Shown piece after piece: positions 19,901 through 46,900 of a stretch of 64,000 bases of DNA. The position numbers were made by a program, and so were the translations under genes. Every line of letters starts with the position of its first letter. The stretch's first letter is position 1. Under the pieces are notes generated by a model, which was given only the letters and a program-made list of their open reading frames with translations, searched no databases and was not told the origin of the DNA. The stretch lies in the NCBI GenBank assembly GCA_026874595.1, contig CM049316.1:63221176-63285175 (forward strand). Direction: 5' to 3'. The stretch comes from Sipunculus nudus (Eukaryota > Annelida > Sipuncula > Golfingiida > Sipunculidae).

Positions 19901-22900
19901 TACCAAACAATGAAAAATAATATCATTATCAGTTCAGCCTGACAAAACAAATATCTATGGATAAAATAAAACATCACAAAAACACTTTTAACTTTGAAAA
20001 CACTATTCATTAAATATTTATCCTCTAGTCTATGAGTAAAACACAAAATAATTGTCTCATGGAAACTGAAGTATTTTTTAATACAACATGGCAATGCATG
20101 GGTGTATTGATTGATCAAATTACTGATGTAATGAATTCTAACTTCTTGGTTAAATTGTAATCCATTCTTAACTGCCAAATCAATTTTGATTGATATTTTA
20201 TGCAAGCACTACTCCATAACCCTTAGTGATCTTTAAACTTTAAAGAGCTAACCACAATATTGAGACTATTTATTGTGTATGTACTCAAGATATAGTTTCA
20301 ACTCTCACCAGTAAAGCATTCCACTCGCATTGAAATGAAAATGGCAGCGATGAACAGAGGGAAACTATATTTTTCCTTTACTTGGTAAAATTAACTGCCA
20401 TCCATAGTGGTAAAATATAAAATTTTACTTACAAGAGTCTGAAATTTAGTACTAATGTAATAATTGAATAGAGAATCGAATTGAAGATAACAAATCAATT
20501 AACTGAACTGATTCAAAGGTCCCTCACAATTCACAAGCCAATGCATAGAAGTTACTTAAAACTTATATCACGTGGTGGTGTTTTGTGCAGGGGGCATTGC
20601 ATCCAGAACAGAGACTGGGCCCGACGTGAATGGCTGGTGTAAAGTGTGACGTAACAGGTAAATTTAGAAATGATTTAAATCTAACAATACATGTTGTTTT
20701 TATTCTTCCCTTAATTTGGGTCTGACAGTATCAGAATTACTAAGCTTTTCATGATATCTGGAATTTTTGTAACAGGGGTTTTTTCACTGCTAAGTTCACA
20801 GTTCTCACAGATGCACCAAAGAAAATACTTAACCTCCTCATATTTTTTGTGGCAAAATAAATAGAAAACATATATGTCCTTTTATGTTAAATATATATTA
20901 ATATTTTTTATAGGTAAATGTGTTATATGATAATATGAAACTTGGAATACATTTGTTTGACTTGAAAGTACTCACTAGCAAGTGCTGCTTCTCTTTTAAG
21001 CAGACTGAGGCTGGCCTGTACAGGAATGGTAGTTGGTGTTTTCATGGTGACTGTCTCCCCATTGGCTGGCATGAAGCAGTCGACACCTACAGACACAAAC
21101 ACATACTTGCTGAAATGTCATTTATTTTATATAGTTTCATGCAGTGTAACAAGTATTACATAGTCTGCATTAGTATGAGGGTATAGTAGTTAAAAGTTCT
21201 CTCACACATGAGAGATATATGATGATTCATACTTTGATACATATTTCTTAGGTTAAATATTTGCAGTATTTACTTCTTCAGTGTTTCATGAGGGATTCAT
21301 TTTCAAGATTTAGCATACAGTAACTTACACATTGTATATAATCATTATAATGTCAATTCACATTCTTCATACGTTATCGGGGCGTAACCACAAAGTAGCC
21401 TAGTGACCCATAACCTTATTAAATAAGTGTGGATTTTGCCCACAATCAAACTCAGGCAAGATAATCTAATGGTTTGTAGTTGTGGTGAGTTTCATGAAAG
21501 TCCAACAAAGCCAAGGTAAGTTATCGTGGCGACACTTCTGTCATATGATGGGCGTATAAAAAGTACTTAGTAAACCAGTATGGATATTAAAGCTCACAAT
21601 GACCTTGAGTAATTTTAACAGCTGTGTAAATATCAAACCAAGTTTCTTAGGATTTCAAATTTGGGTCCAGAGGTTTATATAGACTTCACACTTAAATATA
21701 AAATGAAATGTTGCAAACACGATCACCTGCAGGACCAGCCAAAGTAGTCATATTCGCAGGGGGGTCGCGTTAACAAGTGATTTTCAAGTTGATTTACATG
21801 AGTATGGGACAAAAGCAAGTGGTCATCTTAGCCCAATGTTCGTGATAACAGGGTGGTCATCAGGCAAGATTTCACTGTAGTTTACTTAATACCTGTGTTT
21901 GTATATTTGTCTATACAGTGGAACCTCTCTGAAAAACAAGGGACCTATGGGTCACGACGCTCAGCTGTTATATATGATAAAAAAATATTATTTAGAAATG
22001 AGGCACATGCTGGTTTTGTGTGGTAATAAATATAAGCTGTATTATGAGTTGTTGTTGTTTAGCTTATGTATGATTTTGATAGTACCTTTGGAGACAGGGA
22101 AGAGGATTGATTTAATTTATTTTATTAAACAAATGGAGTACTATTGTCACACAGATTTTGACTTGGCCATATAACTTATAAGCAGAACATATAATATAAG
22201 AGTTTAACTATTTATTAAAAAAAATTACAAATATTGTCCCAAATATAATTTTTATTAAAAATAATAAGAGAATCATATGATTTTTTAAAATGAAATATAA
22301 CTGATATGATTATTAAAATAATATTAAAGAATATATTCATGAATGCATTCATGAATACATTTTGAAAGTATTTGCACGAGTATTCATATACCTTCATTTT
22401 TACCTGAATTCCCATTCTTTATGCAAGAAATTTTATAATGGAGTACATAATCATATTCGTATTTTAATACAATTACAAAGTATTCGCACCATGTCTGGTA
22501 TTTATTCAGTTTTCACCAAACAATGATGTTGAGAATCCAGAATATACAAAATTCACACATTTAAATAATGATCATAAGTACCTGGTTTTTATGGCTTTTA
22601 TTTATATTAAAAAATAACTGTAAAAAATTCATTTTGGACTAATTTCACATCAATGTACACACTAGACACAGTAGGAATCTAGATTTATATTATCAACTGC
22701 ATCTTTGTCTATCATTAATTACCTTCATATGATCCCTAATGATTAGTAATGAATAATATGATTTACTTCTTTATCATTAAAACTGAACTGAAAAATGCCA
22801 TAGGTGACTGCATGGTGTTATTTGGAATATGTGACATTCTACCCATTGATACAAGATTCTTATATCATCAGTAACTGCAAGTTAATTTCCTGTTATTTTA

Positions 22901-25900
22901 AACTAACAAATTCCTTTTCTATTTTTCTTTAATTTGTTATTAAAAACCAATAAAAATTGATTAATTTATTGTTTATTGTTATGTTGTTGGTTAAAACTAC
23001 TAGATGAGTTGGGTTGGACACCTGGATCAACTATGGCTGGCCATAAGCTGCCTGGATTCTCACCTCAAGCGTGCATAATTTGATGAAAGGTCAACAAGGT
23101 CAACATACAGGTGACTCAAGAGGGGCTGGAGAGAGCCAAAGTCTGACAGGGTCTCATAAAAAAACATTAATAAAAGCTACAATTTTTGGCCAATTGCTTT
23201 CAGCTTTCTAAACTAAAAAGCTGAAATCCTTATGTGTGCATGATATGAAAATTATATCAACAGTGCTCACGGGAAACAAACGTGCCATGGTCACAGTTGG
23301 GCAAAAATTTAAGGTACTAATTTTATATTTATACTAATAACTTATAAAATTTGAAAAATTCAGAACTAATTTTGGGTATTCAATTGAATCTTGATTAAAT
23401 AATGTTACATCCCTGACAAAAAAATCTCTAGCTTCAGCAATGCCCTTGTTAAGGGAGTAAATATTTCTCAATTTTTTACAAAGTGCATTATGTTTGGGCC
23501 CATAACTTAAAATAATTACGCAATACTGACATCATTCTGGCATGTGCATAGAGAATGAAAAATATGTATATTATTTATGATTAAAGTCAGATCAGTGGTT
23601 TTGATATTAGGCAGTCTTGAAGTGTAACACTGGGTTTTAATGGAAAAATGAAGTTTTTCATTAATATCTCAGGGTATTAAGTCCTAGTGACCAAATTCTT
23701 GGCATGGTAGGGGATTTTGGAGACATCTAACTGTATGCCGGATTTAAGGAACTTAGAGCTGAAGCTGGGGAGCTGAGCTCTTGCAAACTGCATAACACTA
23801 GCTTGATGTAAACAATATGTTACATGGTGCTTGAAAACTTGATTTAAATCTACAGTTTTTGATCAACTGGTTTCAAATTTTTGGTGTTAACAGTTGAAAT
23901 GCTAACAAAAACATGCTGTGAAAATTAAATCCACAGTACTTACAGGAAAAAAACGTGCCATGGTCAAAGTTGGGCAAAATTTAAGGTACCAATTTTTTAT
24001 TTTTATTAATATTTTAACAAATTTAAAAGATTTTCATCTAATTTTGGGTATACAATTTAATTTTGATTAATTAAAGTTATGATACTGGAAAAAAGGTCCA
24101 TAGCTTTAACATTTTTTGTGTTAAGTAATCAAATATCTTTCCTAATTTTTTACAAAATGCATTATGTTTGGGCCCATAACTTTTTTAAATTAAATAATAC
24201 AGACATAATTTCTGGCATGTACATAGGAATTATATAGAGGAATATTTATGGTAAATATGAGGAAAAACAGATGAGTGGTTTTGATATTAGGCAGCCCTGA
24301 AGTGTGAAAATGGGTTTTTAATAAAAAATTGAGGTTTTTCCTTAATTTCTCAAAGGAACGAAGTCGCAAAGACCCAGTTTTCGGCTTGGTAGGAGATCTT
24401 GGGGACATCTAACATTATGCCGAATTTTGGATTCCTAGGTCTTACGGTTTCAAAACGTGCCACATCTACGGACGGAAGGACGGACGGACGGACAGACGGA
24501 CGGATGGATGGACAGACGACGGACAATGGACCACGACTATAGCTCAGATGACTTATAGTCAGCTGAGCTAAAAAACACCTCTCTTATAAGACTACCTGTC
24601 TATTAAGACCACCCTGGGTTGAACTGAAAGCATTCAGATTGGTTATGACTGATCAGTCTTATAAGATCACATGTAATTTAAGACCACTTTTGGCCAGTCT
24701 CATGGGTAGTCTCCAAACACAGGTAACACTATAAACATTTTTTCTCACCGAATTCTTGTGTGATCTTTTTACTGAGGAACTCCATCTTACTGGCCTCTCC
24801 GTGTACAAGCATCACGTTGCGGGGTTCACATTGTCTGATGAGCTGCATGATGCCTTTAGCATCTGCGTGAGCACTGAATGACATGTACTGGACAGCCATC
24901 TTGACATCAATCTGCAATGGAAAACAGTTACAATCTATATTATAACTGACGGTGGTCACACATCTCCATGGCCACGCTTCGTGTCCACACAAGTGGACAC
25001 GAAGCTTAAATTGGGATATTAGTAGTCAGCTGGAAGTGTGCAACAGGCAACGACTTAATGAACCATGTTGGTTTGGAATAAATTTCTAGGAAAGACCATC
25101 AATAAATGCTGAAATCACTGGAAAAAACCTTAGTTCAGCAAGGTGGTGGTGTGCGGCGTTAACTGTCCCAAAACCTCTAGACTTTACAAGTCAATGAAAT
25201 AGTTGAGCAGAGAGCCATATATTTGTAAAATAGTTTGCCTTGAGGTGACAATACCTGTTCACCTTGTGAACAAGGAAAATGGTAATAAGTATGTGATAAA
25301 AATAATTATTATCAATCTTGAATTTCAGGTTTTCTTTAAAAAATATGAAATATCCAGAAATCATATAATCTGTCCTTCAATCATGCATTTATCAGAATAT
25401 AAGTTGACCTAACCATGAACTGTTTGACCTTAATCGCATATTTTTTCAATGAATAATCATAAGCAAAGCAACCAATCAAGTATCCTTTGGCAATGTAAAC
25501 AGCCAAGCACCTGCCAACCACAAAATTTGCATAATTTGGGGGACTCTCCTATACAGAACACATGTAGTCTGTACCAGTAACCCTGTCTGCATGTCGCTCT
25601 GGGATATTTTTCATACAAAGGAAACAGTATAAAAAGTTATAGGCCAAAAGTTGCAGGAGCTATTCCACCAATTGCTGTGTGTATAATAACATCTTACCTT
25701 GCTCTGAATATGAATGAGACAAATAATCCAAAATATGGTAAAAAAACTTCATAATGACTGTGATAAATTCATCACTGAAGAACAGAGATATAGCAATGCC
25801 AGCTGATGACGTCAGTCAATGCGATGTCATAGGCGATAACCTTTGTGACGTCACCATTGTCTAAAAAACAGCTCTCGCAACCTTCTATAGGCATGGAAAG

Positions 25901-28900
25901 CCTTCTGTGTTGGAAGGTTTTTGAGGCTCATAAGCATAATTTGGTCAAAGGGGCAGAGCATAAGGGCTGTGGTGATTAGGTCAATTACATCATTCAAAAT
26001 GAATAAATGCTTAAGGAAGTTATGTTATCACCTATGTCTGCTTGTTTATCTCTCTGCAGGATTACACAAAATCCACTGCACTAATTTCTACCTTACTATG
26101 TAAAGGGGTGGAAAATGAGCTGGACCCTATCTGACCTTTATAAACTAAAGGTAATCCCTTGGAGCTTTTATAAAAATAGGCCAGAAAACATGGATATCAT
26201 TGCAAAATGGCTGCTTATTTTGTTTATATCATATCAAGGTGTTTATGATATGTGGGGGCTGCCAGAATAATCAAAACAAATTAAACTAGGCATCTGGCAG
26301 TAAGTCAGATAAGCCAGAGCTTTGCAAATGGCATTATGCAACAAGTGACCTTTTTATCTCAGCATCTATGCAACCTACCACCTTAGATTACATTTTTAGC
26401 TCAGCTGACTATAAGTCATCTGAGCTATAGTCGTGGTCCATTGTCCGTCATCCGTCTGTCCGTCCGTCCGTCCGTCCGTCCGTAGATGTGGCACGTTTTG
26501 AAACCGTAGGACCTAGGAATCCAAAATTCAGCATAATGTTAGATGTCCCCAAGATCTCCTACCAAGCCGAAAACTGGGTCTTTGCAACTTCGTTCCTTTG
26601 AGAAATTAAGGAAAAACCTCAATTTTTTATTAAAAACCTATTTTCACACTTCAGGACTGCCTAATATCAAAACCACTCATCTGTTTTTCCTCATATTTAC
26701 CATAAATATTCCTCTATATAGTTCCTATGTACATGCCAGAAATTATGTCTGTATTATTTAATTTCAAAAAGTTATGGGCCCAAACATAATGCATTTTGTA
26801 AAAAATCAGGAAAGATATTTGATCACTTAACACAAACAAGGGACCTATGGGTCACTGTGCTCAGCTGAAGTTAACCTTGAAGGTAAAAATCTAAAATAAT
26901 ATCAAATGGAGATTAAGTGTAAGAGGAAGAGGTAATAAAGGCCATGGTTGGTTTATATGATTGGTTTGTATTGATGAGCAAGAAATTGTTGCAAATAATA
27001 TTTTGTGACCTGACCATGTGTTTCCTAATGTTGAAACTGAAGCATGTGAGCAGTTTGTGAACAAATGATCTGTACAATTACCATTATCATTAGTTGGCTT
27101 TTCGATTAACTGTTGACATTTCAGTAGTTTACACATTTGTTCAATCAAATCTTTTTTTTGTATAATATATATTATTAAATATATGTTTTTTTTATGAAAT
27201 GTATACAGTTGAAATATAACTAATTAACAACATAAAACATGGCAAACAAAGCCTGATCTCAAATTCTGCTGATGCAGGAAAATAATGAACAAATGTTTGT
27301 AATAAATCCTCATTTTTTTATCACATCAATTTTTTTTTTAATTTAAGTTTATATTTCTATAAATTTTCAATATAACATATATATCTGAATATAAAAGTTG
27401 ATTCATAATTCTCAATTGCATCATCATAAATCTCAATCTTGTCAGATAACACCACATCATGCATACAAATGTTTATTTATTTTTTACCACAAAAATATAT
27501 CTTTTAAATCTGCAAAACAATAAATATCTAAAAAAAATACTTGATTTAGATTTTACAATTTTTAATTGTGTCTTTATTTATCCATAATGTGCTTCATATT
27601 TTATCATAATTTAAGCATACTGATGGGTTCCATTATGATTGGTAAAATCATTTAAAAGAAAAATGATTTCTTTAAAAATGCTACATTACACAACATTGCA
27701 TCTTCTGGATTACACCTTGAATTACTTTTTCAAGGAAAGTTTTTGCATATCAGAGTGGAAGCAGCATTACAATTAAGGAGATACAGTGAAAACAATAACA
27801 ATACTGCATAACACTTGGTGGGTTGTGTTTGCGGGGGGGGGGGGGGGGGGGGTCATTGGGGTGGTGATATGAGAATAACTGTACACTTGTCACAGCAGGG
27901 GATCTCCCCCAGTGACTGTAACAAATCAGAAACCCTGGCATAGCTGACTTCCAGTGACCTGGAGTGGGACCCTGCACCTGTAATCTGTAAACAAAGCAAA
28001 TGACTACAATAGAGCCTCAAGAAAAAAATCAATAACTAGCTTAATTTTCAAGCTTTTACTTCCAAATTTCAGATTTAAACAAATTAAATATTTATGTTTA
28101 CATGCTGTGAAAATTAAATCAATGGTACTTACAGGAAAAAAACGTGCCATGGTCAAAGTTGGGCAAAATTTAAGGTACTGATTTTATTTTTATGCTAATT
28201 ACTTAAAAAATTTACAAAATTCAGATCTAATTTTGGGTAAACAATTGAATCTTAATTAAACATAGTTATATACTTGGGAAAACAGACTCTAGTTTCAAAA
28301 TTTTTCATGTTAAGTGAGTAAATATTTTTCCTGATTTTTTACAAAGTCCATTATATTTGGGCCCATAACTTAAAGAATTTATACTTAACAGACTTAATTT
28401 CTGGCATGTACATAGGAACTATATAGAAGAATATTTATGGTAAATATGAGGAAAAACAGATGAGTGGTTTTGATATTAGGCAGTCCTGAAGTGTGAAAAT
28501 AGGATTTTAATAAAAAATTGAGGTTTTTCCTTAATTTCTCAAAGGAACGAAGTCGCAAAGACCCAGTTTTCGGCTTGGTAGGAGATCTTGGGGACATCTA
28601 ACATTATGCTGAAATTTGGATACCTAGGTCTTACGGTTTCAAAACGTGCCACATCTACGGACGGACGGACGGACGTACTCCCGTAGGTGTATTTGTGGGG
28701 TTCATCACTTATGGGGTGCACGGGAGTACACATTTGTTTTGTGGGCACCACCTTAATGTCCAAAAATGTGGGGTGCTTCAGCTATTAATGTGTGGGGTGC
28801 AAAATCCATTAACAGTGGGGTGATTTGTTCATTAAATGCAGGGGGATTTGTGTTTTACGAGAAGGGAACATTCAATATACATTGGGTTTGAAAGGGGGAA

Positions 28901-31900
28901 GAGCACTGGTACTATCTGGCTATTTAAGTGGAAACGAGGGGGGGGGGGGGGGGCGTGGAGAGGTTGCAAGATCAGTTGATCGCCATGTTGGCCTGGAGAA
29001 GTCTAAAATCTATCTCCGTCTTATCATAAATGATTCACAAACTCAAGAGCTGCATCATGATCAGGATTACAGTGCTGACAGTTTGCACTGCTGTCAGTGG
29101 ATGGCATGTAAAATTTGAAGAAAAAGGACCAGCAGTTTCAGAGAGGTCAAAAGTGCAATCTCCTAAACTGAGTACATAATGATCCACAGTTGTAACTTCT
29201 GCAGGATCATCACCAACTCCTTACCTAGCTGAAGCCAATATGCCTTGCAGTATTGCATGAACTGAAAATGTAAATAATTGATGACAGCATTAGCTCAGCT
29301 GTCAAATGAAACATTTGTGCAATAGATTGTTCTCCACTATAAACCTCTAGTTTAATTTGCAAGGTAAGTTCATAAATACGGAGTCACCTTGGAGATTAGT
29401 TTTGCAAAAAAATCCTGGTGTACATTTGAAAACAAAAAAAAAACTGATTTGAATAAGCAAAAGCAGCTGGCATATCCACAATGGCATATTCACAAAGTAG
29501 TGCAAGATATCCCAGCTGAAACATAACACACATTACAAATTTGGAGATGTAATTTTTTATTTAAAAAAAACAAGAGATTACATACTGTGAAGTAAAAACT
29601 TCCACTTACAAGCAGAAGAACAGGCTTTGCCATAAGATATTTTTAAAATCATCAGAAGGAACATTAAATTATTCAGCAGGCAAGTGACAGAGTTTCCACT
29701 CCAACAGGAGGACCAATGACAATCAAAGAAGTCTTGGATCTATTTAAAAATTTTCAACAAATATTAGGTCTTCAAGTTTACATAGAAAAAACAACAATAA
29801 TGCCAATAAAACTTTTTTTAACTAGACATTTCTTGGAACCGCAGGTGCCATAGTATCCCCAGACAATTAACCCCTCCCATCTTCTCCCCCTCACACCTGC
29901 CTTGCTCACAGTACTGTCAAGTACTAATGATGGGGTATTAAAACCTGCTTAAACAAGAAAAAGATAATAGGTGGCACCACCAGTTTCCAGAATATGACAA
30001 AGCTATCCGAGATCTTTGGTCAACTTTAATTTTGGATCGATCCATGCAATATTACTAGAAATATTAAAGAATTTGTATGATATATGGAAATATTCAAGGT
30101 CATGGCCACTTTCACAGGAAAGGTCATGACCCCAATTTAAACATACATCATCCAATAACCCATATCTAGGTATATGCATAATATAGGAGAAATCTGACCA
30201 TTACTTTTTGAGTTATAATGCTCACAGTACTGTCAAGTAGCACTGATAGAGGATTAAATCCCGCTAAAACAAGAAAAAGACAATAGGTGGCACCACCAGT
30301 TTCTGGCACATGACAAAGCTATCCAATATCTTTTGACAACTTGAATTTTGGATCAATCCATGCGAAATTATTTGAGATATTAAAGAATTTGTGTGATTTT
30401 CACCATATATGGAAATATTCAAGGTCAAGGCCATTCTCACAGGAAAGGTCATGACCCCAATTTATACATACATCATCACATATCCCATATCTATATATAT
30501 GCATAATATTAAAGATATCTGACCATTAGTTTTTGAGTTATAATGCTCACAGTACTGTCAAGTAACACTGATACAGGTATTAAAACCCGCTAAAACAAGA
30601 AAAAGACAATAGGTGGCACCACCAGTTTCTGGCACATGACAAAGCTATCCAATATTTTTGGACAACTTGAATTTTGGATTAATCCATGCAACATTATTTG
30701 AGATATTAAAGAATTTGTGTGATTTTCACCATATATGGAAATATTCAAGGACAAGGCCATTCTCCTAGGAAAGGTCATGACCCCAATTTATACATACATC
30801 ATCCCATAACCCATATCTATGTATATGCATAATATTAAAGATATCTGTACATTACTTTTTGAGTTATAATGCTCACAGTACTGTCAAGTAGCAATATTGG
30901 GGGTATTAAAACCCGCTAAAACAAGAAAAAGGCAATAGGTGGCACCACCAGTTTCCGGCACGTGATAAAGCTATTTAAGATCTTCGGTGAACTTGAATTT
31001 TAGATCAATCCATTCAAGATTTCTTCATATATTTAAGAATATGTGGGTTTTTGCCCAAAATTGCACCTATTCAAGCTCATGGTCACTCTCCTATTGAAGG
31101 TCATGACCCCATTTTAATTAGGCGTTGTCCTCTCATCCATATCTATGCATATGTATAGTTTGTATAAGATCAGTGAAATATTTTTTGAGTTATCGTGGGT
31201 ACAAGATTTATATGCGGCGGTGTGGATGGGACCGACATAAAACCATAGTATCCCCGACTTTGTCTGGGGATACAATAAGAGAGAACTAAAACACTTGGGT
31301 CTGTGTTGGTGCACTGATCCAATCAAAATTTTAGGAATCTCAATTCCAGTCTCTGATAACTCACTCTCCAATTGCTGATTCTTGGACTGATGTGTGGATA
31401 GCTCGTCCCTGGAATCTACGTCATGACCATTTGAACTACTGTCGTCACTGTTATCATTTGTTGGACTGTACAGGCTCCCTTCGCGATCTCTAGATTCAGT
31501 TACATCAGACACACTCACTGATTGGTTTGCACACAGCTGGTTCTCAGTCTGATGTATTATGGAGGGACTCACAGGTATTTGGATCTCAGGTAGAGGACTC
31601 AGTGCATGACTCTCAGGTTGAGGATTCCTGTACAGACTTACAGGTAACAGACTCTTAGACTGAGGATTAGTGGACTGACCCTCGAGTGAAAAACTCACAG
31701 GTTGAAGGCATGTGGAAAATGGACTTTCTGACAGCTGACTCCCGGATAATGGTCTCTCATCATGTTGAATCCCTGATAGCTGACTCACAGATGTCAGACT
31801 TCCTGGTAAACTGGAAGTTCCAGTCTCTGATAACTTGCTCTCCACTTGCTGATTCTTGGACTGATGTGTGGATAGCTCATCCCTTGGTTGACTCTGTTCA

Positions 31901-34900
31901 AGCTGGGCTGTAAACATTGAAATGAAATCTTTTTATCCATCTTTTCCAGGTTACGGGGTCACATACACAAAATAAATAATTAAAAATAAGTTCTTTTTTG
32001 TTCAAATAAAAATCCACAGCATTATATAGAAATAAAAAATCAAATACAGGACACCAATTACAAGACCGACCAAATTTAAGTTCTGATCTATTTAACATGT
32101 TACCATCATTTCTACAAGCGGTCAATCTGAGCAGTCATAAATCTATAGAAATTTGTTGCAGCACAAGAACATCAATTATTCAAATCTGCTGAAAGCAGCA
32201 AACATTCCAGGCAAAACACCTTTGTTAACAACACTAAATATGTGTAACAAGTCCAATCTAGTTAGGTGGTCACACAACACACAGACTTCTCTGGATGACT
32301 TATCCCTTTATGATTATCTAAATGGCTTTAGACCAAATACAGCAAATCTGTGATCCAAATACAAATGCTGGCTCTCAACCTCAAATAGAAATACTAAATT
32401 TGGTAATATTTAAATTAAGATACAAAAACAAAAAGGTATCTCACCAGTTCTCTACAATACATCTATACACAATACACTCCCTATCTATACACAATGCATT
32501 GTGAACCTGAGTGACACAGGAGCACATAATCCACAAAATTTAAAAAAGAAAGAGTCAATGACGACCAAGCTCTGACAACCACAGAAATAGGTACACAAGG
32601 TAACATACATCTGAAAGCTGTGCTGCAAGATATACTTACTTAGAATCCATTCAAAGTCATCCAAGAATGCCTTCAGAGAATTGGGTTTTTTCCTCAGCAT
32701 GACTGAAACAAGATAATCAACATGGTAATTACCACCTCCAGCATTATTCCCACTAAAGTAGAAGTGTTGTCTGGACATCTTAATGAAAGTTGTATATGAA
32801 TAATATGAAAATCAAAAACCATGTAAACAGCAAACTGATAACTTGAGGCTGGATAGCTATTACGAAGCATCATTCATTACAAAACAATATTTAGAAATGA
32901 ATGATGCATCTAGCTCTCCAGCTACATGTTATTAAAGGATTGTGTGTTCTTGTGGCATTTACCACAAAAAAATTAAATTGGCAAGGGATCATAACCTTAA
33001 AACAGTGTTTTGCCCTAAATAGCTTATATTTTATCAAACAGCCATGAAACAGTTCCTTTTAATTTTGATAACACTGTGATAATATTCTGAATTTCCAGCA
33101 TTTACATTTTGCCATTTTAAATCAACTATACTTTTATACTCTGTGCAATTATCTTTTAAAACCTTTATGCTAAATTGCAATTAAAATGAAATATAAAAAA
33201 TTTAAAATAAGTTGAGCCATCTGCCCCCCCCTAAAAATACTTGATTTTGGCTACCAATTCAGTATACATTTTACTGGCCATTTGGGTTGGCGAGAAAAAA
33301 TCTTAAATAAAACCCCAATCAAGCAAAAATCCATTAATGCAGAGCATGGAAATTAAACAGAACTCAAATTCTTACCTAATGTCAATCAGGTTTTTTTTAA
33401 TTACCTAACTTCATCAAAGAAAAATGAACAATGTTACAAACTGCTTCTTTGTAAATACCTCGTGATATTTTGAATTATAATCTGACAGTTATTTTTCTTT
33501 CTCATGCAGTTTCTCTTCTCAATAGGAAAGTGCAGGTAAATGGTCAAGTTTACTATGGGAACCTTGCACATGAATTTTGGTCTGGATATTTCATAGCACT
33601 GTCAGAAGAAGTGTCTGGGGAAGGGTTCCAAAACTAGCAGATAAACAAGCATGGTATATTAACATATGGACATTGGTTAAATCAGGTCTGCACAAATGTC
33701 TAACTAAATATGTAACTGATTGCAGGAAATGACACGAAAAGGTGACATCTAATATCAATTTTGAAAGAACCATTAAGTAGAATTGATATTATTGAAATTC
33801 ACATGAAGACAGGCCTTGGGAAATTCACAAGTGTGCAGGGCCAAGAAAAATACAGATTTGCCTCTAGAGAATATGTCCCTAATATGCTGGGTAGGTAGGA
33901 AGGTTATGGTAGCTAATTAGGAAAAAAAATTTTAAAACCTTTTTTAAAAAGGAAGAATTTGCAACCAATGAAATCTGTCGATAGGCTTTCAAGTATTGAA
34001 CATATTAATTAATATGAGTGGTTGAGCAAATTTTTCTTTCCAGGTGAAGCACAGCAAGTGTTACTGTGTAGGATTCTGCTGTCTTTGAAGATTCAGCTAC
34101 TTTCTTGGAATAAAATATTCCAAGCAATTCTCTGTCACAAAGTTTTCATCTGGAGATCATAAAACTTTCGGTTCGGGGTCATTTTTTACTGTCAGTCAGG
34201 TTTCAAGAAATTAACTTTTATAGGCCCTGTCATTAATGGCTGTCCATTCACAGCTGTATCCTTTAAAAACACAGGGACTGCTCCATGAATAATTTATACA
34301 TGTAGTAAATTCCGCCAATGCTATCATGCCTTAACTAAGAACAACAAACTGAACATTTGCGCTTTCATTTACCTTTCCCTTTCTCTAAAAGAGAAAGATG
34401 TTTCCCCCACTCTAATATGTTGGCTTCTTTTACTGTAAAACTGGTTGCAAAATATAACACAATTGAATAAGGATATGTAGCACTACAACTTTTACAACAT
34501 TATAATCAACAATATAAAAAGCATAATTTTAAGTAAACTACATGCAGTATGAGATCCAATATCTCTGAAATATGTTTAAGCAATATACTTAAAATAATAT
34601 TACAATATATACCATCAGTTTTGTTTGTTTTCTGACAAACCAGAAAAGCCCCTTCCTTTACTCATAAATATTCTCTTAAATTTTTTATAATAAAATCTGT
34701 TCCTTGTTGCAAAGGACAGACAAACACATTTTATATACTGAAATATAATATTTAAAGCAGACCAAGTCTGGCAGTCAGGTGCATGGACATTCCCTTGCCT
34801 GGAAAACAGTCCAATACAATTAATTTCAAAATTTCATGGCTGAAAATGAGTGACTCAGCATCTCATCAAGAAGAGGAATTCCACAATATACTGTACCCCT

Positions 34901-37900
34901 TGTGGAAAAAATAAAAATAACTGATATATATATAAATATTTTAAAATAAAGTATAACTTGATTATTTATATATATATATATATATACCAACTCTAATACA
35001 GTCAAGACTGAATGTTCATGTGATTTGATTGGCCAACGTGGCATTGTTCTTTAGTCGTGTGTGTACTTATCTTTCGACCGTGTTCTAGGTGGCTTTCCAG
35101 CTACAAGTTGATGTCACCCATTATAAATTCATGTCACTTAACCAGAGTGGGTCACTTAGTCATGATGTGTCCCTCTAAAATGCCTGTTTTCAACCACTGT
35201 CAAGCATCTGTGGACTACTTAAGCATCAATTGGATCACAAAACTTTTACCTCCTGTTCCATAGGTCATGTCTGACCCCCCCTGAATATTTTATCCAAACA
35301 TGTCCATTACTTCTTGATTAGTCTTGTACACTTCCAAACTGTTAAAAAATTGTCAGCAAACAAACATGTAACCCCCTTTGTCAGAGGTAAACAGCAGTTA
35401 AGATTTTGATATATCTCATTGTACATCAACTTACATCAAAGAAATCCATAGAAATTTCTTAAATCAACCCTAGATATTACTCACTAAGCATCATCAGAAC
35501 TGGAGTAGACTGTAATTGAGGTCCCCTCTGAATCCACAATCTTTACCGGCCAGTACACTTTCCCTATTCCAGGGAGGCGACTCCATGCAAACATATCTGA
35601 AATTAGTGAATCATAATGAATACTGTCATTTATGTCACAGTGCCACATGAAAATGTCATGAAATTTTCAATATTTATATAAACTCAACGTTAAAAAACTT
35701 AACCATAAAAAAAATGGATAACATACCCTACTTGTAACATGAAACATCTGCTCATCTTGGAGACAAGATTATACACCCTGCAGTAATGGACAAATCAATC
35801 CTCATAACATCGACAATTTATAAGCCACTGCACCCCACTTTTATGGACAAATCACCCCGAAAGCAACAGACAAATATTCAAGTTTCATACTCCTCTTACA
35901 TATACGCAAAGACATCCCACTGTTCCAGACAAATCACTCAACTATGGACTCCCCCCCCCCCCCCCCACCCCTAAGTAACAGACAAATATTCATGTTTAAA
36001 ACTTTTCTTACATTTATGCCAATGCAACCCACTTTTATGAACAAATCACCCCAACATTTATGGACAAATCACCCCCCCCCCCCAAGTAACAGACATTTAC
36101 ATTTAATACTCATCTTGTAAATATGCCAATGCACCCCACTCTATTGGACAAATCACCCCAGTGACCCCACACAATAGGACAATTCATATACCAATGCACC
36201 CCACTTTTATGGATAAATCACACCAATATTTATGGACAAATCACCCCCCCCCCCAAGTAAGAGACATTTACATTTAATACTCATCTTGTAGATATGCCAA
36301 TGCACCCCACTCTTTTGGACAAATCACCCCACACAACATGGATAATTTATGTGCCAATGCACCCCACATTTTATGGACAAATCACCCAACACAACATGGG
36401 AGAATTTATATGCCCATGCACCCCACTTTTATGGACAAATCACCCCAATATTAATGGACAAATCATCCCCCAAGCAAGAGACATTCACATTTAATTCTCA
36501 TCTTGTAAATATGTCAATACACCCCAGTCTTTTGGACAAATCACCCCACACAACATGGATAATTTATGTGCCAATACACCCCACATTTTATGGACAAATC
36601 ACCCCAACATTTATGGACAGATCACCCCCCCCCCCCAAGTAACAGACATTTACATTTAATACTCGTCTTGCAAATATGCCAATGCACCCCACCCTTTTGG
36701 ACAAATCACCCCAGTGACCCCACACAACATGGACAATTGATATACCAATGCACCCCACTTTTATGGACAAATCACACCAATATTTATGGACAAATCACCC
36801 CCCAAGTAAGACCTTTTACATTTAATGCTCTTCTTGTAGATATGCCAATGCACCCCACTCTTTTGGACAAATCACCCCACACAATATGGATAATTTATGT
36901 GCCAATGCACCCCATATTTTATGGACAAATCACCCCCCAAGTAAGAGACATTTACATTTAATACTTATCTTGTAAATATGCCAATGCACCCCACTCTTTT
37001 GGACAATTCACCCCACACAACATTGAGAATTTATATGCCAATGCACTCCACATTTTATCAACAAATCACCCCACCAGTCATGGACAAATCATCCCCCCTC
37101 CAAGTAAAAGACATTTACATTTAATATCCCCATGTTATGCACACATTTTCAGTTTTCTTTCTCACCTGCAGACAAGCTAATACACCCCATCGACACATCA
37201 TCCCCACACAATATGGACAAAAAACTTATTTGGCAGACAACCAAATGCTGATCATCGTTGTTGACAAATCACCCAACAATACTTGAACAATTTACCTCAC
37301 ATGAATAGATGCGGAAAAACTAGAAATGCACTTGCAAAAACAGATGCCCCCCCCCCCCGCTGTATATAGGTTGTATCAATAAAGGTCAAGGTCACCCGGT
37401 TAGGATCTGGTGTGAGATCTTGGTAGGAACGATCAGAAATTCACATTACGGTTGATCTGACCTTGAGGATGCAGCTCAAGGTCACATGAATAAACATGCA
37501 TGCATTGATTAAATGAACTCATGAGAACAGCAGTTGGTAAATGACCTGTTCAATATCCGTGCAATGAAAAAAGATCGCGACTATAGAATCGGGTATGCAT
37601 GTTCGGACATCAAGCATAAATTCATGGAGCAGTAATAAATTTTCTTGCAATATTTTTGACTTTCTTCACAATATTACACTTATTTAAAAAACTGTAATAT
37701 AATTTATTCCTTATTTTTTTTTTAAACATACAACATTACAAGCTTTGACTTTAATTTCCTCCACAACTCCAAAACCCCAGTTTTTCTCTCCCCAACATGC
37801 AGACCGGATTCTAGCCCCTCTGATAAAAGTTACAAATGTTGATAAAACAGTAGTAAACAATGTTGGCAATATGCATCAAAATGCTTTTTTTATGTTGATT

Positions 37901-40900
37901 AGATTTTATTACAAACATTAATTGTTAAATTACACTTGAAGCTTCTCTTTTTATTTTTTAACACATCAACTCAGTTATGTTGATTTTTTTCAAAATGTTT
38001 AACACGTTTATCCATCTTGAGATGAGCACCGCCGTGTCGCGTGTGACATGGCAAGGGTACGCTGTACTTCTTGTATACAGTATAGTGACAGCTATGAAGA
38101 ATTCAATGACAAGTTGTATATCGTAGGAAGATTAAAACATATCAAGGTTTTATATTTAAAGTTTCATAATGATACTGTGAGCCGTTATTAAACAGGACAA
38201 TTACCCAGAGAACGCTGCTGCGTGAAGCCGCTTGACAGTACATCTGACACGTTTTCTCATTTCAGGCCGCAACGACACAGCGGCATATATCTTTATTATT
38301 TAATCAAACAATATTAAAAATTAGTTCTTGAATAATATCACCTCATTTATAATGGGCGTCAAAGTTTAAGATTTGCCAATTACAGCTTAACTCTCTACAG
38401 ATCTATCGCACGATCAACATCTTACCGCTTGGTTTATCCGCCATCTTGACTCAAAGTAACCCGAGCGAGAAACAAGCTAGCGACAGCTTGTCACCCCAAA
38501 CGTCGATTTTAGATATACTGAAGACGATGGGGTGACAGTACAAGCTATTGGGTTCGCATCAATTCTAGTATGTGCAGATGTGCACGCCATTTCTGACACT
38601 ACTTTTTCATCTTCATCTACTTCTCGAGCTGTCATTTTCCTGAGTTAAGACAAAAAGTGACGTTATTCTGTTGGAAAAAATAATAATTATTACATCAACG
38701 GTTGACTTACGTGTATTCGTGCAGCAGTTTTTAATACCGAGGCTGGTTTTACTCGAAAAACTCGTCTCCACGTCTGTTAGCGGGAGAACCATAAATTCCG
38801 GTAGGGGATTCCCAAACGGCTATGTGTAAAACTCGGAAGTCCGAAGTCGGAAGCAAGGATTTTTTAAAATAATGCAATGATCGAAGCATAATTAAAATGC
38901 TACTACATCAATGGAAAGTACCATTTTATTTTTATTGATAGAATAAGGTTTTTTCTATCATAATGCAAAAATCAAAGTTATCCATCCCAAGTTATAGACT
39001 ATTTTTTTCTCGGAAATGCCCGGTTATGGTCCAGATGTGTAAAACTCGGAAGCCAGTAATGGCTAATGCACTGGTCATCATATTGTCAGCAAACGTGTCA
39101 AGCATTTTCAATTATTTCAATATGACTTTTTTCATAAACTCAATCTGTTTTTTAACATTCATGATGCTGTTTTTTTTTTATAATATATGATATTGATATT
39201 TTATTTCATTTTGTAAAACAAGATTATATTAACTCATCAATATTTTACGCTGTTACCGTATTTTATGTTGGGGGAAAAAGTAAATGTTTAAATATAATTT
39301 GTTACAGAGCAAATGTTATAGATATAAAAAATTCTGTTTAATTATAGAACCTGATACCAGCAACTATTAAGTTCAGAGAGAAGGATGTCCGAAAGCGCAC
39401 GGTACTATACTGTATCGAGAATTCCGACTATAGTCCGGTTAATTTTGTTTTCTGAGGATAAAAATATAAGGATAAAATAAAAATAGTGAGTATACACAGA
39501 ATATTCAGATGCATGGATTTTTATAAAGATAAAAATATATTGAATTTCCATATTTATTCAACGTATGGAAAATATATTACTGTATTTATTTTGAATGACA
39601 TCGTAATTCATAACTTTTTTTTAATGCCGTATTAGGGATTATTATACCATATTTATTATTCAGTGGTGCATCCATAGAGGGCGCATGCCCATTCAGACGT
39701 AATATCTCTCATTTTATCGAGTTCTTTTCCAATAAATTCGTAATCAATTTTCATTTCTTTTTCAGATTACTTTTTTATTCCCCAGCAATTTCATTATTAT
39801 ATTTCTTTACTTTCCAATTCATAAGTTGGTGATTTACTCCAAAATGAGAGCATCCAAATATATACTAGTATATTGAGGAATCCCCCCCCCCCCCCCCATC
39901 GCATTACCGTGCGAGTCATGCACGGTCTCCCCACAGAGCTCAGCTCGGGGTGGGATCGACCGCGAAATATCTCACACCTCCTCGGCTGATACTCAGACTC
40001 AGCCTGGGCGCTCACAGATCACAAAAGTCGGTAAAATGCAAAGATCGTCATAAGACTTAAACAAATCAATTATTTTACAATGAGTACTACCTTTAAATAG
40101 TGACATTTTGCAAGTTATAAATGTATAGATGGGCATTTCATCATTGACATTAACATGTTACGAATTAACTTTTGAATATTTGGACTTTACAGTTTAAACC
40201 GTAATTTTATAGAAATATAAATATTAAAGCCCAACAACCTCAAGTTTGAATAAATTGTTCAAAAACATGTAGGAGAATAGTTGCGGAAAACAGAAAATCC
40301 TCATAATCATTTGTTTAAGGTGCCTCAAAATGTCCTCTTTACATTGCATATTTTAAAAATTTATCCCTTCCCATACATTCCCCATGTAAATATAAATATC
40401 TTCAACAAAAACATAGCTCTAGATGGGGAGAAATATATAACGTGAAAATATATATATATATATATATATATTAAATTTACAAATAAAATAAATAAGAAGT
40501 TTTAGGTTTTCAATTATGTATCATGTATATTGTATTATACACTCATTAAAAGTTGAATCATGCATAAACAATTTTAATATATGCATGCAACTATAATTAT
40601 AATGTAACTGCATTTGGGCTGTGGCTCTTAACTGACCACAAGTTAACCAGTGCGTCTCTGTGACTTCCGATACACATTGGATCACATCCCAGCACATCTG
40701 ACTGACTTCCGAGATGGCTTCCGAGCACAAAATCATCCATAACTTTCAGATTAAAGAATGGATCACTATTATTCTTCACAGAATGATAATGAAGATCTTA
40801 TTCTATCGGGGAAAAACAAAACGGTATTGAAGCGTTAGCATTTTGTACATGCTTTAAACTGCTTTATTTATAAGACAATTGCTTGGTTTCCGGCTTCCGG

Positions 40901-43900
40901 CTTCCGAATTCCAAGTTTACATACACGACCGCGCCATGACACATTTAGTTTTGAACGAGAAGTACCGCTTCACGTGAATCAGTGCCACAGTGATGAAAGG
41001 AGGTAATAAATGTAATTATTTTTGTGTAACAACATTTCTTCTTCGATATTAAGCACATATAATACGACTTTATAAGCCTGTGATGCCAAATAATACCAGA
41101 AAGTAAATATTTTGATCCGACCCTTAGAATGGGCGTTCTGTTGTGACTGCCATCATGACTCCAGGCCCTATCAGTTTATTTCCGAAGGCCTGAGTGTCAT
41201 GTTGTCATGGCTAGAAACAAGCGGACCTTTCCTCATTCCAGTTTTACAAATCTATAACCTGATCATTCGCACATTAAATTAAGAATGTTACAGGCATTTT
41301 TCTAACCTTTTTTCATTCGTTTCGTCATTATTCGAGCTTTCATTTCCCCACACACACATAAACACAAATGCGGGTTTTGAGATTATTTATCATTTCCATA
41401 CCGGACATGTGCCATTTCGGCCAGTATAACCGTTTCGTAATATTTCGGCCCGATGTCACATTAACTGCTGGGTCCCAAAATCGTAGTTCCACCCAGACAG
41501 CAAGCTTATAAACACACTTAGCTTACTAAATACAAATCAATACTTACCTAGTAACTTGAACTTGTACGAATAAATGGAATATACGATCCCCAAAAAGTGC
41601 CCAAGTCAAAAGGTACGAATTGTCTACACCGGAAATGAGGCCGAAAACAAAATGGTCCGAAATGCCTCGACGTCATTTTTCGCGCCGAAAGACCGTTCCC
41701 TCATTGGTTAGCACACACCAGGAGTCACCTTGACGTCATTTTGGCGCCAAAAGACCGTTCTCTCATTGGTTAGGTTAGCACACACCAGGAGTCACCTCTG
41801 CATCATCATTTTTGTCCATTCTACACGTGTTGTCCGTCACCACGGACATCCGTGAGATTTGTGGGGTGATTTGCCATATTATCACTGCACCCCAGGGATG
41901 ACAAATGGACACGTTTGAAAGCCATCACTCCTGGGGTGCAGCCCACAAGTGACCACAAATCCCCACAAGTTATATCTGTACGGCCATTTCACCCCACAAG
42001 TGTGTCACAGGGAGAGCGGACGGACAGACAGACGGACGGACGACAGACAATGGACCACGACTATAGCTCAGATGACTTATAGTCAGCTGAGCTAAAAATG
42101 TTAAAGCTATCGACCTTTTTTCCAGTAATATAACTTTAATTAATCAAAATTAAATTGTATACCCAAAATTAGATGAAAATCTTTTAAATTTTCTAAAATA
42201 TTAATAAAAATAAAAAATTGGTACCTAAAATTTTGCCCAACTTTGACCATGGCACGGTTTTTTCCTGTAAGTACTGTGGATTTAATTTTCACAGCATGTT
42301 TTTGTTAGCATTTCAACTGTTAACACCAAAAATTTGAAACCAGTTGATCAAAAACTGTAGATTTTAATAAGTTTTCAAGCACCATGTAACATATTGTTTA
42401 CATCAAGCTAGTGTTATGCAGTTTGCAAGAGCTCAGCTCCCCAGCTTCAGCTCTTAGTTCCTTAAATTCGGCATACAGTTAGATGTCTCCAAAATCCCCT
42501 ACCATGCCAAGAATTTGGTCACTAGGACTTAATACCTTTGAGATATTAATGAAAAACTTCATTTTTCCATTTAAAACCCATTGTTACACTTCAAGACTGC
42601 CTAATATCAAAACCACTGATCTGACTTTAATCATAAATAATATACATATTTTTCATTCTCTATGCACATGCCAGAATGATGTCAGTATTGCGTAATTGTT
42701 TTAAGTTATGGGCCCAAACATAATGCACTTTGTAAAAAATCAAGAAATATATTTACTCCCTTAACAAGGGCATTGCTGAAGCTAGAGATTTTTTTGTCAG
42801 GGATGTAACATTATTTAATCAAGATTCAATTGAATACCCAAAATTAGTTTTGAATTTTTCAAATTTTATAAGTTATTAGTATAAATATAAAATTAGTACC
42901 TTAAATTTTGCCCAACTGTGACCATGGCACGTCTGTGTCCTGTGAGCACTGTTGATATAATTTTCAAATCATGCACACATTAGGATTTATGCTTTTTAGT
43001 TTAGAAAGCTGAAAGAAATTGGCCAAAAATTGTAGCTTTTATTAATGTTTTTTATGAGACCCTGTCAGACTTTGGCTCTCTCCAGCCCCTCTTGAGTCAC
43101 CTGTATGTTGACCTTGTTGACCTTTCATCAAATTATGCACGCTTGAGGCGAGGCATACAGGAATCCAGGCAGCTTATGGCCAGCCACAGTTGATCCAGGT
43201 GTCCAACCCAACTCATCTAGTAGTTTTTACCAATAACATAACAATGAACAATAAATTAATAAATTTTTATTGGTTTTTAATAACAAATTAAAGAAAAATA
43301 GAAAAGGAATTTGTTAGTTTATAATAACAGGAAATTAACTTGCAGTTACTGATGATATAAGAATCTTGTATCGATGGGTAGAATGTCACGTATTCCAAAT
43401 AACACCATGCAGTCACCTATGGTATTTTTCAGTTCAATTTCAATGATAAAGAAGTAAATCATATTATTCATTACTAATCATTAGGGATCATATGAAGGAA
43501 ATTAATGATAGACAAAGATGCAGTTGATAATATTAATCTAGATTCCTACTGTGTCTAGTGTGTACATTGATGTGAAATTAGTCCAAAATGAATTTTTTAC
43601 AGTTATTTTTTAATATAAATAAAAGCCATAAAACCAGGTACTTATGATCATTATTTAAATGTGTGAATTTTGTATATTCTGGATTTTCAACATCATTGGT
43701 TGGTGAAACTGAATAAATACCAGACATGGTGCGAATACTTTGTAGTTGTATTTAAATACGAATATGATTATGTACTCCATTATAAAATTTCTTGCATAAA
43801 GAATAGGAATTCAGGTAAAAAGGAAAGTATATGAATACTCGTGCAAATACTTTCAAAATGTATTCATGAATGCATTCATGAATATATTCTTTAATATTAT

Positions 43901-46900
43901 TTTAATAATCATATCAGTTATATTTCATTTTAAAAAATCATATGATTCTCTTATTATTTTTTATAAAAATTATATTTGGGACAATATTTGTAATTTTTTT
44001 AAATAAATAGTTAAACTCTTATATTATATGTTCTGCTTATAAGTTATACGGCCAAGTCAAAATCTGTGTGACAGTAGTACTCCATTTGTTAATAAAATAA
44101 ATGAAATCAATCCTCTTCCCTGTCTCCAAAGGTACTATCAAAATCGTACATAAGCTAAACAACAACAACTCATAATACAGCTTATATTTATTACCACACA
44201 AAACCAGCATGTGCCTCATTTCTAAATAATATTTTTTTATCATATATAACAGCTGAGCGTCGTGACCCATAGGTCCCTTGTTTCCTGTTTGTCAACAGAG
44301 CTGAGTTAAAAACATGTTGTTGATAAACAGTTCATACATCCATCATGGAGGCATTTATAAGAAGTTTTTATAACCAGAATTACCCTTAGATCCTTAATAT
44401 ATACTCGGAGGAAGCCAGAAATCACATAAATCCCTTTTCAAAAGGTAGGTCAATGGGCACCTTTAAACTATAGTCTGTATCTGTCCAGAGTGACAGATCC
44501 TGTAGGAATAATTTTGCCTTGTCAAAGGTATGTGCTTATGCAGAGTGCTGCCCAAGTTGATACTAGAATGTATTACTCACAGTCTGCCTGTTCTCCAGCT
44601 CCAGTTTCCTGACACCATTAAGGACTTTGTGTCCCACAGTCCCTGCCACACAGTACCCCGGCATGATGACCTGAAACACACACAATGGTTGTACACAATG
44701 ATGACAAAATGAAGTATGTAATATATATATATATAAATGAATATATGTATCTCTCGCAGATCCCCATTTTATGGCCAAATGACTATTTATTGGCAAACCC
44801 TGAGTTTGTTAGGCACCTTTAGGGTAATAAAATATGACTTTAAACAATATATGTACCTCAGCTGCGTTACTGAAATATTATGCAATGGTTTTTGTTTCAT
44901 CCCAGTTTTAAGAATATGCCTCAATGCTTCATTGCAGAATTTTTTGTGGAATTGTTCAATCAGTTTGTGAAAATAATGTCAAATTCAATGGGTATCTGAC
45001 TGTGGATCAGAATGTACTTAATAAATCACAATGTATCCTGGTAATACTGGTCATAAAATAACTTTTGTGATTACACACAAAGACCCATTTTACCTGAAAT
45101 TAGGTCACTGCAGCCTATATGTGAGCTATGGGGCAAAAATCATAGACAATTGCATCATTGCTTAAAATTAATTTCTCAAAGGAATGAGATGGTGGTGACC
45201 CAGTTTCAGGTTTGGTAGAACTTTGGGACATACAACTGTATGTTGAATTTTGGATTCATAGGTCAAATGGTTTCAAAACAAGCCTTGTTAATGGACGTCT
45301 AGCCAGACAGAAGGACAGACAGTCGGCCAGTACAATGGACCATCACTATAGCTCAGATGCCTTAAAGTCAGCTGAGCTAATTAGTGGTGCCACCAGTATT
45401 TTTTCTAGGTTTCACTCTGTTTTGTTTCAATCATCTGGGGTAAAAATTCAGCATAAATAATTTTAAAGATGTGAATCCTTACCATGTTATTTTCATTTGG
45501 TGCCCATTTCTTGAAGAGCTGGAGTGATAGACCAGCGTGAAGCATGCCTGGAGTTGCAAACACAACCATTGGCCCAGGGTTCTCAGCATACGCCTTCTCA
45601 AAAGGCTGCAGTCAAATAATCATGGCATTAGATAAACATTATCATAATGTCATAAATAATATCAATTTTAGAATTTAATTTTCCAAATTCTACATTTGGT
45701 CAGCTACTCAAATTATGTACATTTTACACATTTAGCTGCATCATTTTATAATGCTCCAATGGTAAGTTACTATGCATTTTTCTTCAGTGACTTAAAAGTG
45801 TAAAATCATAATAATCTGCTAATAATTATGTTTTTGCATAATACAGTTTTTAGTCTCCAATGAAGCTAATGATCTGTTGAGTGAATGATCATTATATAGT
45901 AATGAATGAAATTATATACCAATTCAAAAACAAGAGCACTGCAAATGGTACATAATATGCAAGTAAAATATCTTGTGACCTCTGACCTTTTAAATATGTG
46001 AGAATTTTACTGAAAATATAATTCAGGTGAGAAACTCTACTGGTTAATTTCATGAAAATCCATCAGATTTTTGATAAGTCATCAGGACCACCAAAGTCTG
46101 GTGACCTCATTAAATATGCATCAATTTTGCATATTAAATATCCATCATATTCCTGGTATGTTATTGTGGTGACACCACAAAGTAGCCTAGTGAACTTTGA
46201 CCTAATAAAACTGAACTCAGGTGAGATAATCTATTGGTAAGTAGTCAAGGTGACTTTTGTGAAAAGCCATCAAAGCCCTGGTGAGTTATCAAAACAACAA
46301 ATGTGAACGGACAGACAGACAGATGGACGAACCATAATGGGTATACCATAATATGTGCATTCATAGACATGCATATAATAAATAATTTTGGATATGCAAT
46401 AATCACATAAACAATGCTTTTCTTTCATCCAAGATGGCAAGATAGAGATAATTAATACTATAGGCCAGTTCAAAGAAAGTAGTCTGGAGGTAGTGAGTTA
46501 AATATGAACCAGTGTACCTTAATATGTTTGAACTCAAACATGTTTCTCTGGACAAACGTCTTCCTGATCTTCTGATTGGTCCAGGTGATGAAGAGCTTGT
46601 AGTAATGATTTGCCTAAAACAACCAATGTAGATATAAACTTTAAATAACAAGAAATCTGCACTCTAAGGAATGCAAGCCTCCACCATATTTGGGGGGGGG
46701 GGGGGGGGTCCCTATTATTGGATTCTTCTAAAACCAAGTTTGCATTCACTTATTCAGGTCATATTCCCAGGTTCATTCATACACAAGTGACTAAATTTGT
46801 GGATATTCTTAAATAACATTCCTGAAACCAGATCATAAGCCAGATCCAAACTAATACCTTACAGGTTTTTCATTGGCCCGTTCCTGAAATGCCCTGAAAA

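What the first reader, a model, noticed from the sequence alone, without database searches (positions are those of the whole stretch)
27853..38444. Six-exon gene nested in the long INTS11 intron, coding for an unrecognised PWWP-like protein
Six separate minus-strand segments each have splice sites, and together they give one 309-codon frame with no phase conflict. One acceptor choice (34440) is forced by phase alone, which is hard to get by chance. The protein joins a reader-like N-terminal domain to a long Ser/Gln-rich linker and a short ordered tail. It sits on the same strand as its host, so it must be transcribed from its own promoter inside INTS11 or spliced out of the same transcript.
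Basis: partly seen in the sequence, partly recalled or inferred. Interest (0 to 1): 0.78.

Follow-up and report, generated by a model that had tools for sequence, protein, structure and literature searches.

The report
Truncated chromatin-reader gene in jumping DNA
The supposed gene inside the INTS11 intron is the shortened front part of a larger gene carried by a Helentron-like jumping element that has copied itself around this animal's genome, so its odd protein domain is probably real but this copy is most likely a passenger and not a working nested gene.

Summary
The exons are real in part. Exon 2 recurs in 12 nearly identical, dispersed places and one older copy, mostly with the same neighbouring exons and introns, so this is not a single-copy gene. 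In the window the exons lie sense in a 15.3-kb element (26836-42097, minus strand) with Helentron/HINE ends: subterminal inverted repeats, GTCY microsatellite, 3' palindrome, T-rich target, no target duplication. It sits inside an inverted HINE in a 19.7-kb INTS11 intron.

A full-length copy on contig C8 (24.76 kb, clean empty site) carries a 10-exon gene: PWWP-like exons, Ser-rich linker, zinc-finger-like and, by my reading, tyrosine-recombinase-like parts. The window and nine other copies share one 10.5-kb internal deletion that removed most of it. The PWWP call holds through a paralogue with a PWWP-matching exon and the same intron phases. The PWWP exons were constrained before this amplification. 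This copy is most likely inert; the full-length element, with no Rep/helicase match found in it, is the interesting object.

The parts
26836..42097 (-). Helentron-like mobile element copy; on the minus strand its 5' end is 42097 and its 3' end 26836
   Evidence: ends located; flanks join in a paralogous uninterrupted HINE (93% identity, a 3-base difference in an A run) without target duplication; same kinds of ends in other copies
42061..42097 (-). 5' terminus: T run, subterminal inverted repeat AGCTCAGCTGAC with its complementary repeat; GTCY microsatellite follows (42017-42048)
   Evidence: compare the HINE description in passages of PMC7492417
26836..26867 (-). 3' terminus: subterminal repeat CAGCTGAGC plus palindrome
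41214..42060 (-). 5' region of the element, upstream of the ATG; joined to exon 1 without the nested insertion in other copies
   Evidence: 97.4-99.2% identical in 10 of the 11 other young copies; that of C5 was not fetched and C15 lacks the last 50 bases or so
38478..41213 (.). nested 2.7-kb transposon with 9-10-bp duplication (GAAACAAGC), separating the 5' region from the ATG; absent at this place in the copies whose 5' region was read next to exon 1
   Evidence: high copy number: 40 scored of 1758 candidates
38426..38444 (-). exon 1 (MADKPS, phase 1 end)
35485..35596 (-). exon 2, PWWP-like motif (FAWSRLPG...YWPVKIVD)
34373..34440 (-). exon 3
32640..32702 (-). exon 4, presumed C-terminal helix of the PWWP-like domain
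   Evidence: similarity to the paralogue weak, 38 of 2000 shuffles
31345..31907 (-). retained 5' part of exon 5: Ser/Gln/Pro-rich linker, about 1.2 copies of a 166-residue unit (about two in C8)
31344..31345 (-). junction of the 10.5-kb internal deletion relative to the C8 copy (C8q 8552 | 19037)
   Evidence: identical 22-nt junction in 10 of 13 copies examined; C8, C2 and C9 lack it
31111..31344 (-). sequence beyond the junction, read as the end of the open frame; stop at 31113-31111
29903..31116 (.). 326-bp tandem array (3.8 copies) within the element
26394..26835 (+). 5' part of an inverted HINE (26394 to 44281 on the plus strand) into which the element inserted
42098..44281 (+). 3' part of that inverted HINE
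24912..44580 (-). INTS11 intron that holds all of this

Best explanation
The 'nested gene' is the truncated cargo of a Helentron-like mobile element that landed in the INTS11 intron. The full-length element (one copy found, C8, 24.76 kb) carries a 10-exon gene on its own sense strand, about 1,250 residues: PWWP-like domain, Ser-rich linker with 166-residue repeats, zinc-finger-like part, helical part, tyrosine-recombinase-like boxes and a charged tail. A single internal deletion of 10.5 kb removed everything after the middle of exon 5, and this shorter element then multiplied. The window copy, further split from its 5' region by another transposon, is most likely not a functional gene. SHOWN: dispersal, ends, empty sites, shared deletion junction, full-length copy, PWWP-matching paralogue exon, constraint on the PWWP exons. 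INFERRED: movement by rolling circle using Rep/helicase supplied in trans, the tyrosine-recombinase-like nature of the C-terminal part (motifs compared with recall), and that the full-length protein works on chromatin or in transposition.
For: Copies and introns. Ends and Helentron features: with passages of PMC4067079 and PMC7492417. Empty sites: window and C8, where C8:77.0097M runs from the 5' flank (99% over 379 nt) straight into the 3' flank (97% over 971 nt). Shared deletion. Full-length gene with one frame and one premature stop: (two exon-9 donors fit the phase). PWWP by homology. Constraint: exons 1-4 23/262 changes v introns 513/3326 against C2, P=0.003 (the far and repetitive parts of intron 1, which differ more, were left out of the intron set); Ka/Ks 0.25 (bootstrap 0.09-0.67) for the PWWP codons, C2's stop codons left out; with them counted, 11 of 24 changes synonymous v 23% expected, P=0.011. 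Post-insertion changes in young copies look neutral: 3 synonymous of 9 in the PWWP part, 6 of 19 in the tail. The ZnF/helical part v C17 paralogue: 44% identity over 369 codons, pN 0.41 v pS 0.76.
Against: No RNA data, so expression of any copy is untested. The constraint test rests on one old copy. The linker shows no significant constraint (Ka/Ks 0.71, 0.41-1.36; 18 of 63 synonymous, P=0.26). The only full-length copy found has a premature stop. No autonomous Rep/helicase element with these ends was found (only two loci tested). C8's 5' T run is slightly atypical. Neither the window exon nor the paralogue exon appears in the whole-genome PF00855 list.
Confidence: 0.88

Rival explanations
1. 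A genuine host gene nested in INTS11, with its own promoter and six exons.
For: One open frame with splice sites; exons 1-4 intact.
Against: 12 young dispersed copies, element ends found in most of them; exon 6 is high-copy repeat; exon 5 is cut by a deletion; a transposon splits the 5' region from the ATG.
Confidence: 0.03
2. On the origin of the full-length gene: a passive capture of an ordinary host gene; the constraint seen acted on the host gene, which is not in this assembly or has diverged beyond detection.
For: Helentrons are said to be capable of gene transduction (PMC4067079, passages read; capture with introns is recall); no Rep/helicase match in the element (capped list); relatives elsewhere in the genome include long open frames.
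Against: The old C2 copy already starts at the same element 5' end; no non-element close copy was found in two searches of the genome; the paralogue pair C17/C10 is itself 99.3% identical over at least 18.4 kb on two contigs.
Confidence: 0.4
3. On the origin of the full-length gene: it is the element's own long-term gene, whose PWWP reader and recombinase-like part help it transpose or choose targets.
For: Purifying selection while element-borne; paralogue with similar 5' sequence directly after a GTCY microsatellite (67% over 126 nt, E 0.01 in a 13-kb subject); no autonomous partner could be related to oyster HINEs (PMC7492417).
Against: HINE ends point to Rep/helicase machinery; only one full-length copy, with a stop; recombinase assignment unsupported by Pfam or PDB; no element end found beside the paralogue.
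Confidence: 0.3

Closest known systems
Helentron / HINE (DINE-1-like) elements, incl. oyster Cg_HINE and Pearl
   Same: Subterminal inverted repeats, GTCY microsatellite near the 5' end, tandem repeats inside, 3' palindrome, T-rich target, no target duplication
   Different: Carries a long multi-exon gene; large (about 10-25 kb where both ends were found); no Rep/helicase match in the full-length copy (capped list)
PWWP-domain proteins (PF00855)
   Same: Paralogue exon matches the Pfam model below cut-off; same intron phases in the window gene
   Different: Window exon itself is below detection and has extra residues before YWP; coupled to a zinc-finger-like and recombinase-like C-terminal part
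Crypton-type tyrosine recombinases and their domesticated DUF3504 relatives
   Same: Motifs resembling the R, R, LGH...Y boxes in the full-length copy (my reading and recall)
   Different: No Pfam or PDB match; first His replaced; element ends are HINE-type; membership not shown

Membership tests
Helentron/HINE | Subterminal inverted repeats at both ends | tested here: met
   GCTCAGCTG near the 5' end and its inverted copy near the 3' end in the window element and in the copies whose two ends were found; C15's ends were not found and C5's 5' end was not fetched
Helentron/HINE | Palindrome/stem-loop close to the 3' end | tested here: met
   GACCCATGGGTC-type palindrome next to the 3' end, perfect or nearly so
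Helentron/HINE | Insertion in T-rich/TT target with no target-site duplication | tested here: met
   two empty sites
Helentron/HINE | Autonomous partner with Rep/helicase(-endonuclease) and the same ends | tested here: inconclusive
   143 PF14214 matches listed (150 of 195 candidates scored), none in the C8 element; two loci fetched do not show these ends in 10 kb each
PWWP domain | Match to PF00855 above cut-off | tested here: not met
   window protein no PWWP match, absent from the genome list; paralogue exon 20 bits v 25.6 cut-off, a single exon covering 23 of 93 positions
PWWP domain | Homology to a recognised PWWP exon | tested here: met
   paralogue exon 2: 0 of 2000 shuffles reach its score to two own-genome PWWPs; 1 of 2000 for window v paralogue exon 2; window exon alone v those PWWPs only 126 and 114 of 2000; same intron phases
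PWWP domain | Beta-barrel fold and methyl-lysine binding | not testable with these tools
   spliced proteins are outside the stated rule of the structure tool; no job was sent
Tyrosine recombinase (Crypton-like) | R-H-R-H/W-Y catalytic set and fold | tested here: inconclusive
   R, R, LGH and Y-like positions seen by eye; Pfam and PDB searches found nothing
Single-copy host gene nested in INTS11 | Unique locus, own exons conserved | tested here: not met

The most novel reading that the evidence does not exclude
The full-length 25-kb element encodes its own mobility or targeting protein, a PWWP chromatin reader fused to a recombinase-like domain. It is the missing partner, or a LEDGF-like targeting helper, of the abundant HINEs in this genome, steering them into transcribed gene bodies such as the INTS11 intron.
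Probability: 0.12. Interest if true: 0.85.

Novelty: new variant of a known kind. Interest (0 to 1): 0.58.

Why it matters
It turns a supposed nested gene into a traceable case of a rolling-circle-type element carrying a whole ten-exon chromatin-reader-like gene, present both in an old copy and in a recent burst, with a full-length copy, empty sites and a shared deletion junction in one genome. For oyster HINEs no autonomous partner could be related to them (PMC7492417, passages read), and a PWWP plus recombinase-like cargo gives a testable candidate for a helper or targeting protein. It also warns that such copies may be annotated as nested host genes.

Tried and rejected
Rejected: single-copy nested gene; exon 6 and the 31364 donor; the idea that the window protein's own sequence shows PWWP by Pfam, NCBIfam, PDB or profile comparison (nothing useful); an earlier thought that C8 was the host progenitor locus, dropped when its empty site was found. 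Led nowhere: Rfam, viral contigs (31 pattern hits, none confirmed), two Rep/helicase loci, PDB and Pfam for the C-terminal part (one search gave a sub-threshold zinc-finger match, zf-Di19, 16.9 v 27.5 bits), a middle PWWP exon in the C17 paralogue (no candidate listed). One search hit its time limit and was redone with a mismatch scan.
Full report
WHAT WAS CLAIMED AND WHAT IS THERE. The host is INTS11: the exon at 24.7-24.9 kb matches Integrator subunit 11 in the PDB, and the intron runs from about 44580 to 24912.

IT IS A DISPERSED MOBILE UNIT. A search of the genome with the protein finds exon 2 in 12 young places on 10 contigs (window; C3; C7; C11:20.2M; C13:38.3M; C5; C8; C1; C15; C4; C13:45.4M; C9), one older copy (C2:57.7M) and an exon-5 fragment (C17:43.8M). 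In the young copies exons 2-5 keep the same order and spacing except in C9, which has lost exons 4-5. A second search with the C2 protein gives the same set. Core DNA of the young copies is mostly 98-99.4% identical to the window, C9 being lower at 92.8-97.4%. The shared unit is about window 28100 or 28660 to 38467 plus 41210-42098. Between these the window has a 2.7-kb insertion with a 9-10-bp duplication, beginning about 33 bp upstream of the ATG, which the copies read across that point lack. That insertion is itself a common transposon.

ENDS AND KIND OF ELEMENT. Read on the gene strand, the element begins at window 42097 with a T run, AGCTCAGCTGAC, its complementary repeat and a GTCY microsatellite. 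It ends at 26836 with CAGCTGAGC and a palindrome. Ends of these kinds were located on both sides in C3, C7, C11:20.2M, C13:38.3M, C1, C4, C13:45.4M, C9 and C8; 3' ends differ in type between copies. For C5 only the 3' end was in the stretch fetched, and for C15 neither end was found. Forty scored places (417 candidates) carry one of the 3' ends. These are the features that passages of PMC4067079 and PMC7492417 give for Helentrons and HINEs. The flanks of the window element, joined, match an uninterrupted HINE at 21936-24573 (93%) without duplication, in a T run on the gene strand. So the element lies inside an inverted HINE (26394 to 44281), which lies in the INTS11 intron.

THE FULL-LENGTH COPY. 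In C8 the open frame of exon 5 does not stop where the window's does. It runs for 500 codons, one in-frame stop, and 388 more. Five further exons follow with compatible phases to a terminal stop; two donors of exon 9 fit. The window sequence after 31345 resumes 10.5 kb later in C8. The junction, 22 nt, is identical in the window and nine other copies; of the three others examined C8 is undeleted, C2 lacks it, and C9 has lost that stretch by its own deletion. The C8 element is 24.76 kb. A second place on the same contig, C8:77.0097M, has the 5' flank (99%) running directly into the 3' flank (97%), a clean empty site with no duplication. C8 is therefore a transposed copy.

WHAT THE GENE ENCODES. 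Pfam, NCBIfam and PDB searches with the window protein found nothing meaningful, a PF00855 search of the genome lists six places, none in this family, and a profile comparison with five PWWP exons of this genome was weak. The C8 ZnF/helical part has relatives in this genome, best C10:73.3M and C17:2.9M at 44% (39 matches listed, C8 itself included). In C17 and C10 an exon upstream of that part reads GDAVWVKLDICWWPGMVV..., a match to PWWP at E 0.001 and 20 bits, below the curated 25.6. It has the same flanking intron phases as window exon 2 and similar length. Shuffle tests: window v C17 exon 2, 1 of 2000; C17 exon 2 v two own-genome PWWPs, 0 of 2000 each; window exon 2 v the same two, 126 and 114 of 2000; window exon 4 v C17, 38 of 2000. 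So PWWP is supported through the paralogue and only marginally by the window exon itself. A zinc-finger model matches C8 below its cut-off. The C-terminal exons contain NRRRTGE, STRLRKYMAT and LGH...HYR, which I read as tyrosine-recombinase boxes; that reading rests on recall, and searches gave no support.

SELECTION AND DECAY. Against C2, exons differ at 92 of 804 sites and introns at 513 of 3326 (P=0.004); exons 1-4 at 23 of 262 (P=0.003). The far and repetitive parts of intron 1 (380 of 1811 differing) were left out of the intron count. Ka/Ks is 0.25 for the PWWP codons and 0.71 (not below 1 with confidence) for the linker (C2 stops left out). With C2's stops counted, 11 of 24 PWWP changes are synonymous against 23% expected (P=0.011), and 18 of 63 in the linker (P=0.26). 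The ZnF/helical part is 44% identical between C8 and C17 with pN 0.41 and pS 0.76. Among the 12 young copies, exons 1-4 and the exon-5 frame are open in the window, C3, C7, C11:20.2M, C13:38.3M and C1, and in C8 up to its stop; C15 and C5 have stops, C4 and C13:45.4M share a frameshift, and C9 has lost exons 4-5; exon 1 of C5 was outside the stretch fetched. Changes within the young copies look neutral.

INTERPRETATION. A Helentron-like element carried an intron-bearing gene, seen in an old copy (C2, incomplete in the stretch fetched) and in the young set. One internal deletion made a smaller derivative that multiplied, and one of these landed in the INTS11 intron. The window copy is most likely inert. 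Whether the full-length gene is a captured passenger or a resident gene that serves the element cannot be decided here. Selection while element-borne, and a similar 5' sequence in the C17/C10 paralogue (67% over 126 nt just after a GTCY microsatellite, E 0.01 in a 13-kb subject), lean towards residence; the HINE-type ends, the single stop-bearing full-length copy and the lack of a HINE end beside the paralogue lean towards passenger.

LITERATURE. Searches for PWWP with Helitron (no paper), PWWP with transposable elements and capture (20 of 37 listed), PWWP/transposase/Helitron (12 of 546 listed), Helentron gene capture in molluscs (15 of 50), captured genes in bivalve Helitrons (20 of 52) and Crypton with PWWP (12 of 53) show no title or abstract start describing such an element; most listed papers were not opened. 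PMC4067079 (passages and one section) discusses captured genes useful to Helentrons. PMC7492417 (passages) reports that ten autonomous Helentrons could not be related to oyster HINEs. PMC3212892 was seen in passages only.

Noticed in passing
G000 C17:2911000-2929475 and C10:73341000-73359367 (L039, L040, L043, L044): Paralogous PWWP-ZnF gene lies in a unit of at least 18.4 kb, 99.3% identical on two contigs, starting at a GTCY microsatellite; another recently moved or duplicated gene-bearing unit.
   Followed up: partly
window 21936-24573: A complete 2.6-kb HINE in the neighbouring INTS11 intron with the same ends.
   Followed up: yes
window 11524-16537, minus strand: Stretch with long overlapping frames (628 and 382 codons) that look like a DIRS-type retroelement (recall).
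   Followed up: no
window 38478-41213: High-copy 2.7-kb transposon with 9-10-bp duplication.
   Followed up: partly
window 17343-17448: Perfect 32-bp tandem repeat, 3.3 copies.
   Followed up: no
window 6893-7690 (+) and 61943-62548 (+): Open frames resembling TMEM70 and a glycolipid-transfer protein (recall), likely host exons.
   Followed up: no
C7 copy, L011/L012: A 1.9-kb HINE carrying the exon-6-type module has inserted into the gene-bearing element, so the family nests in itself.
   Followed up: partly
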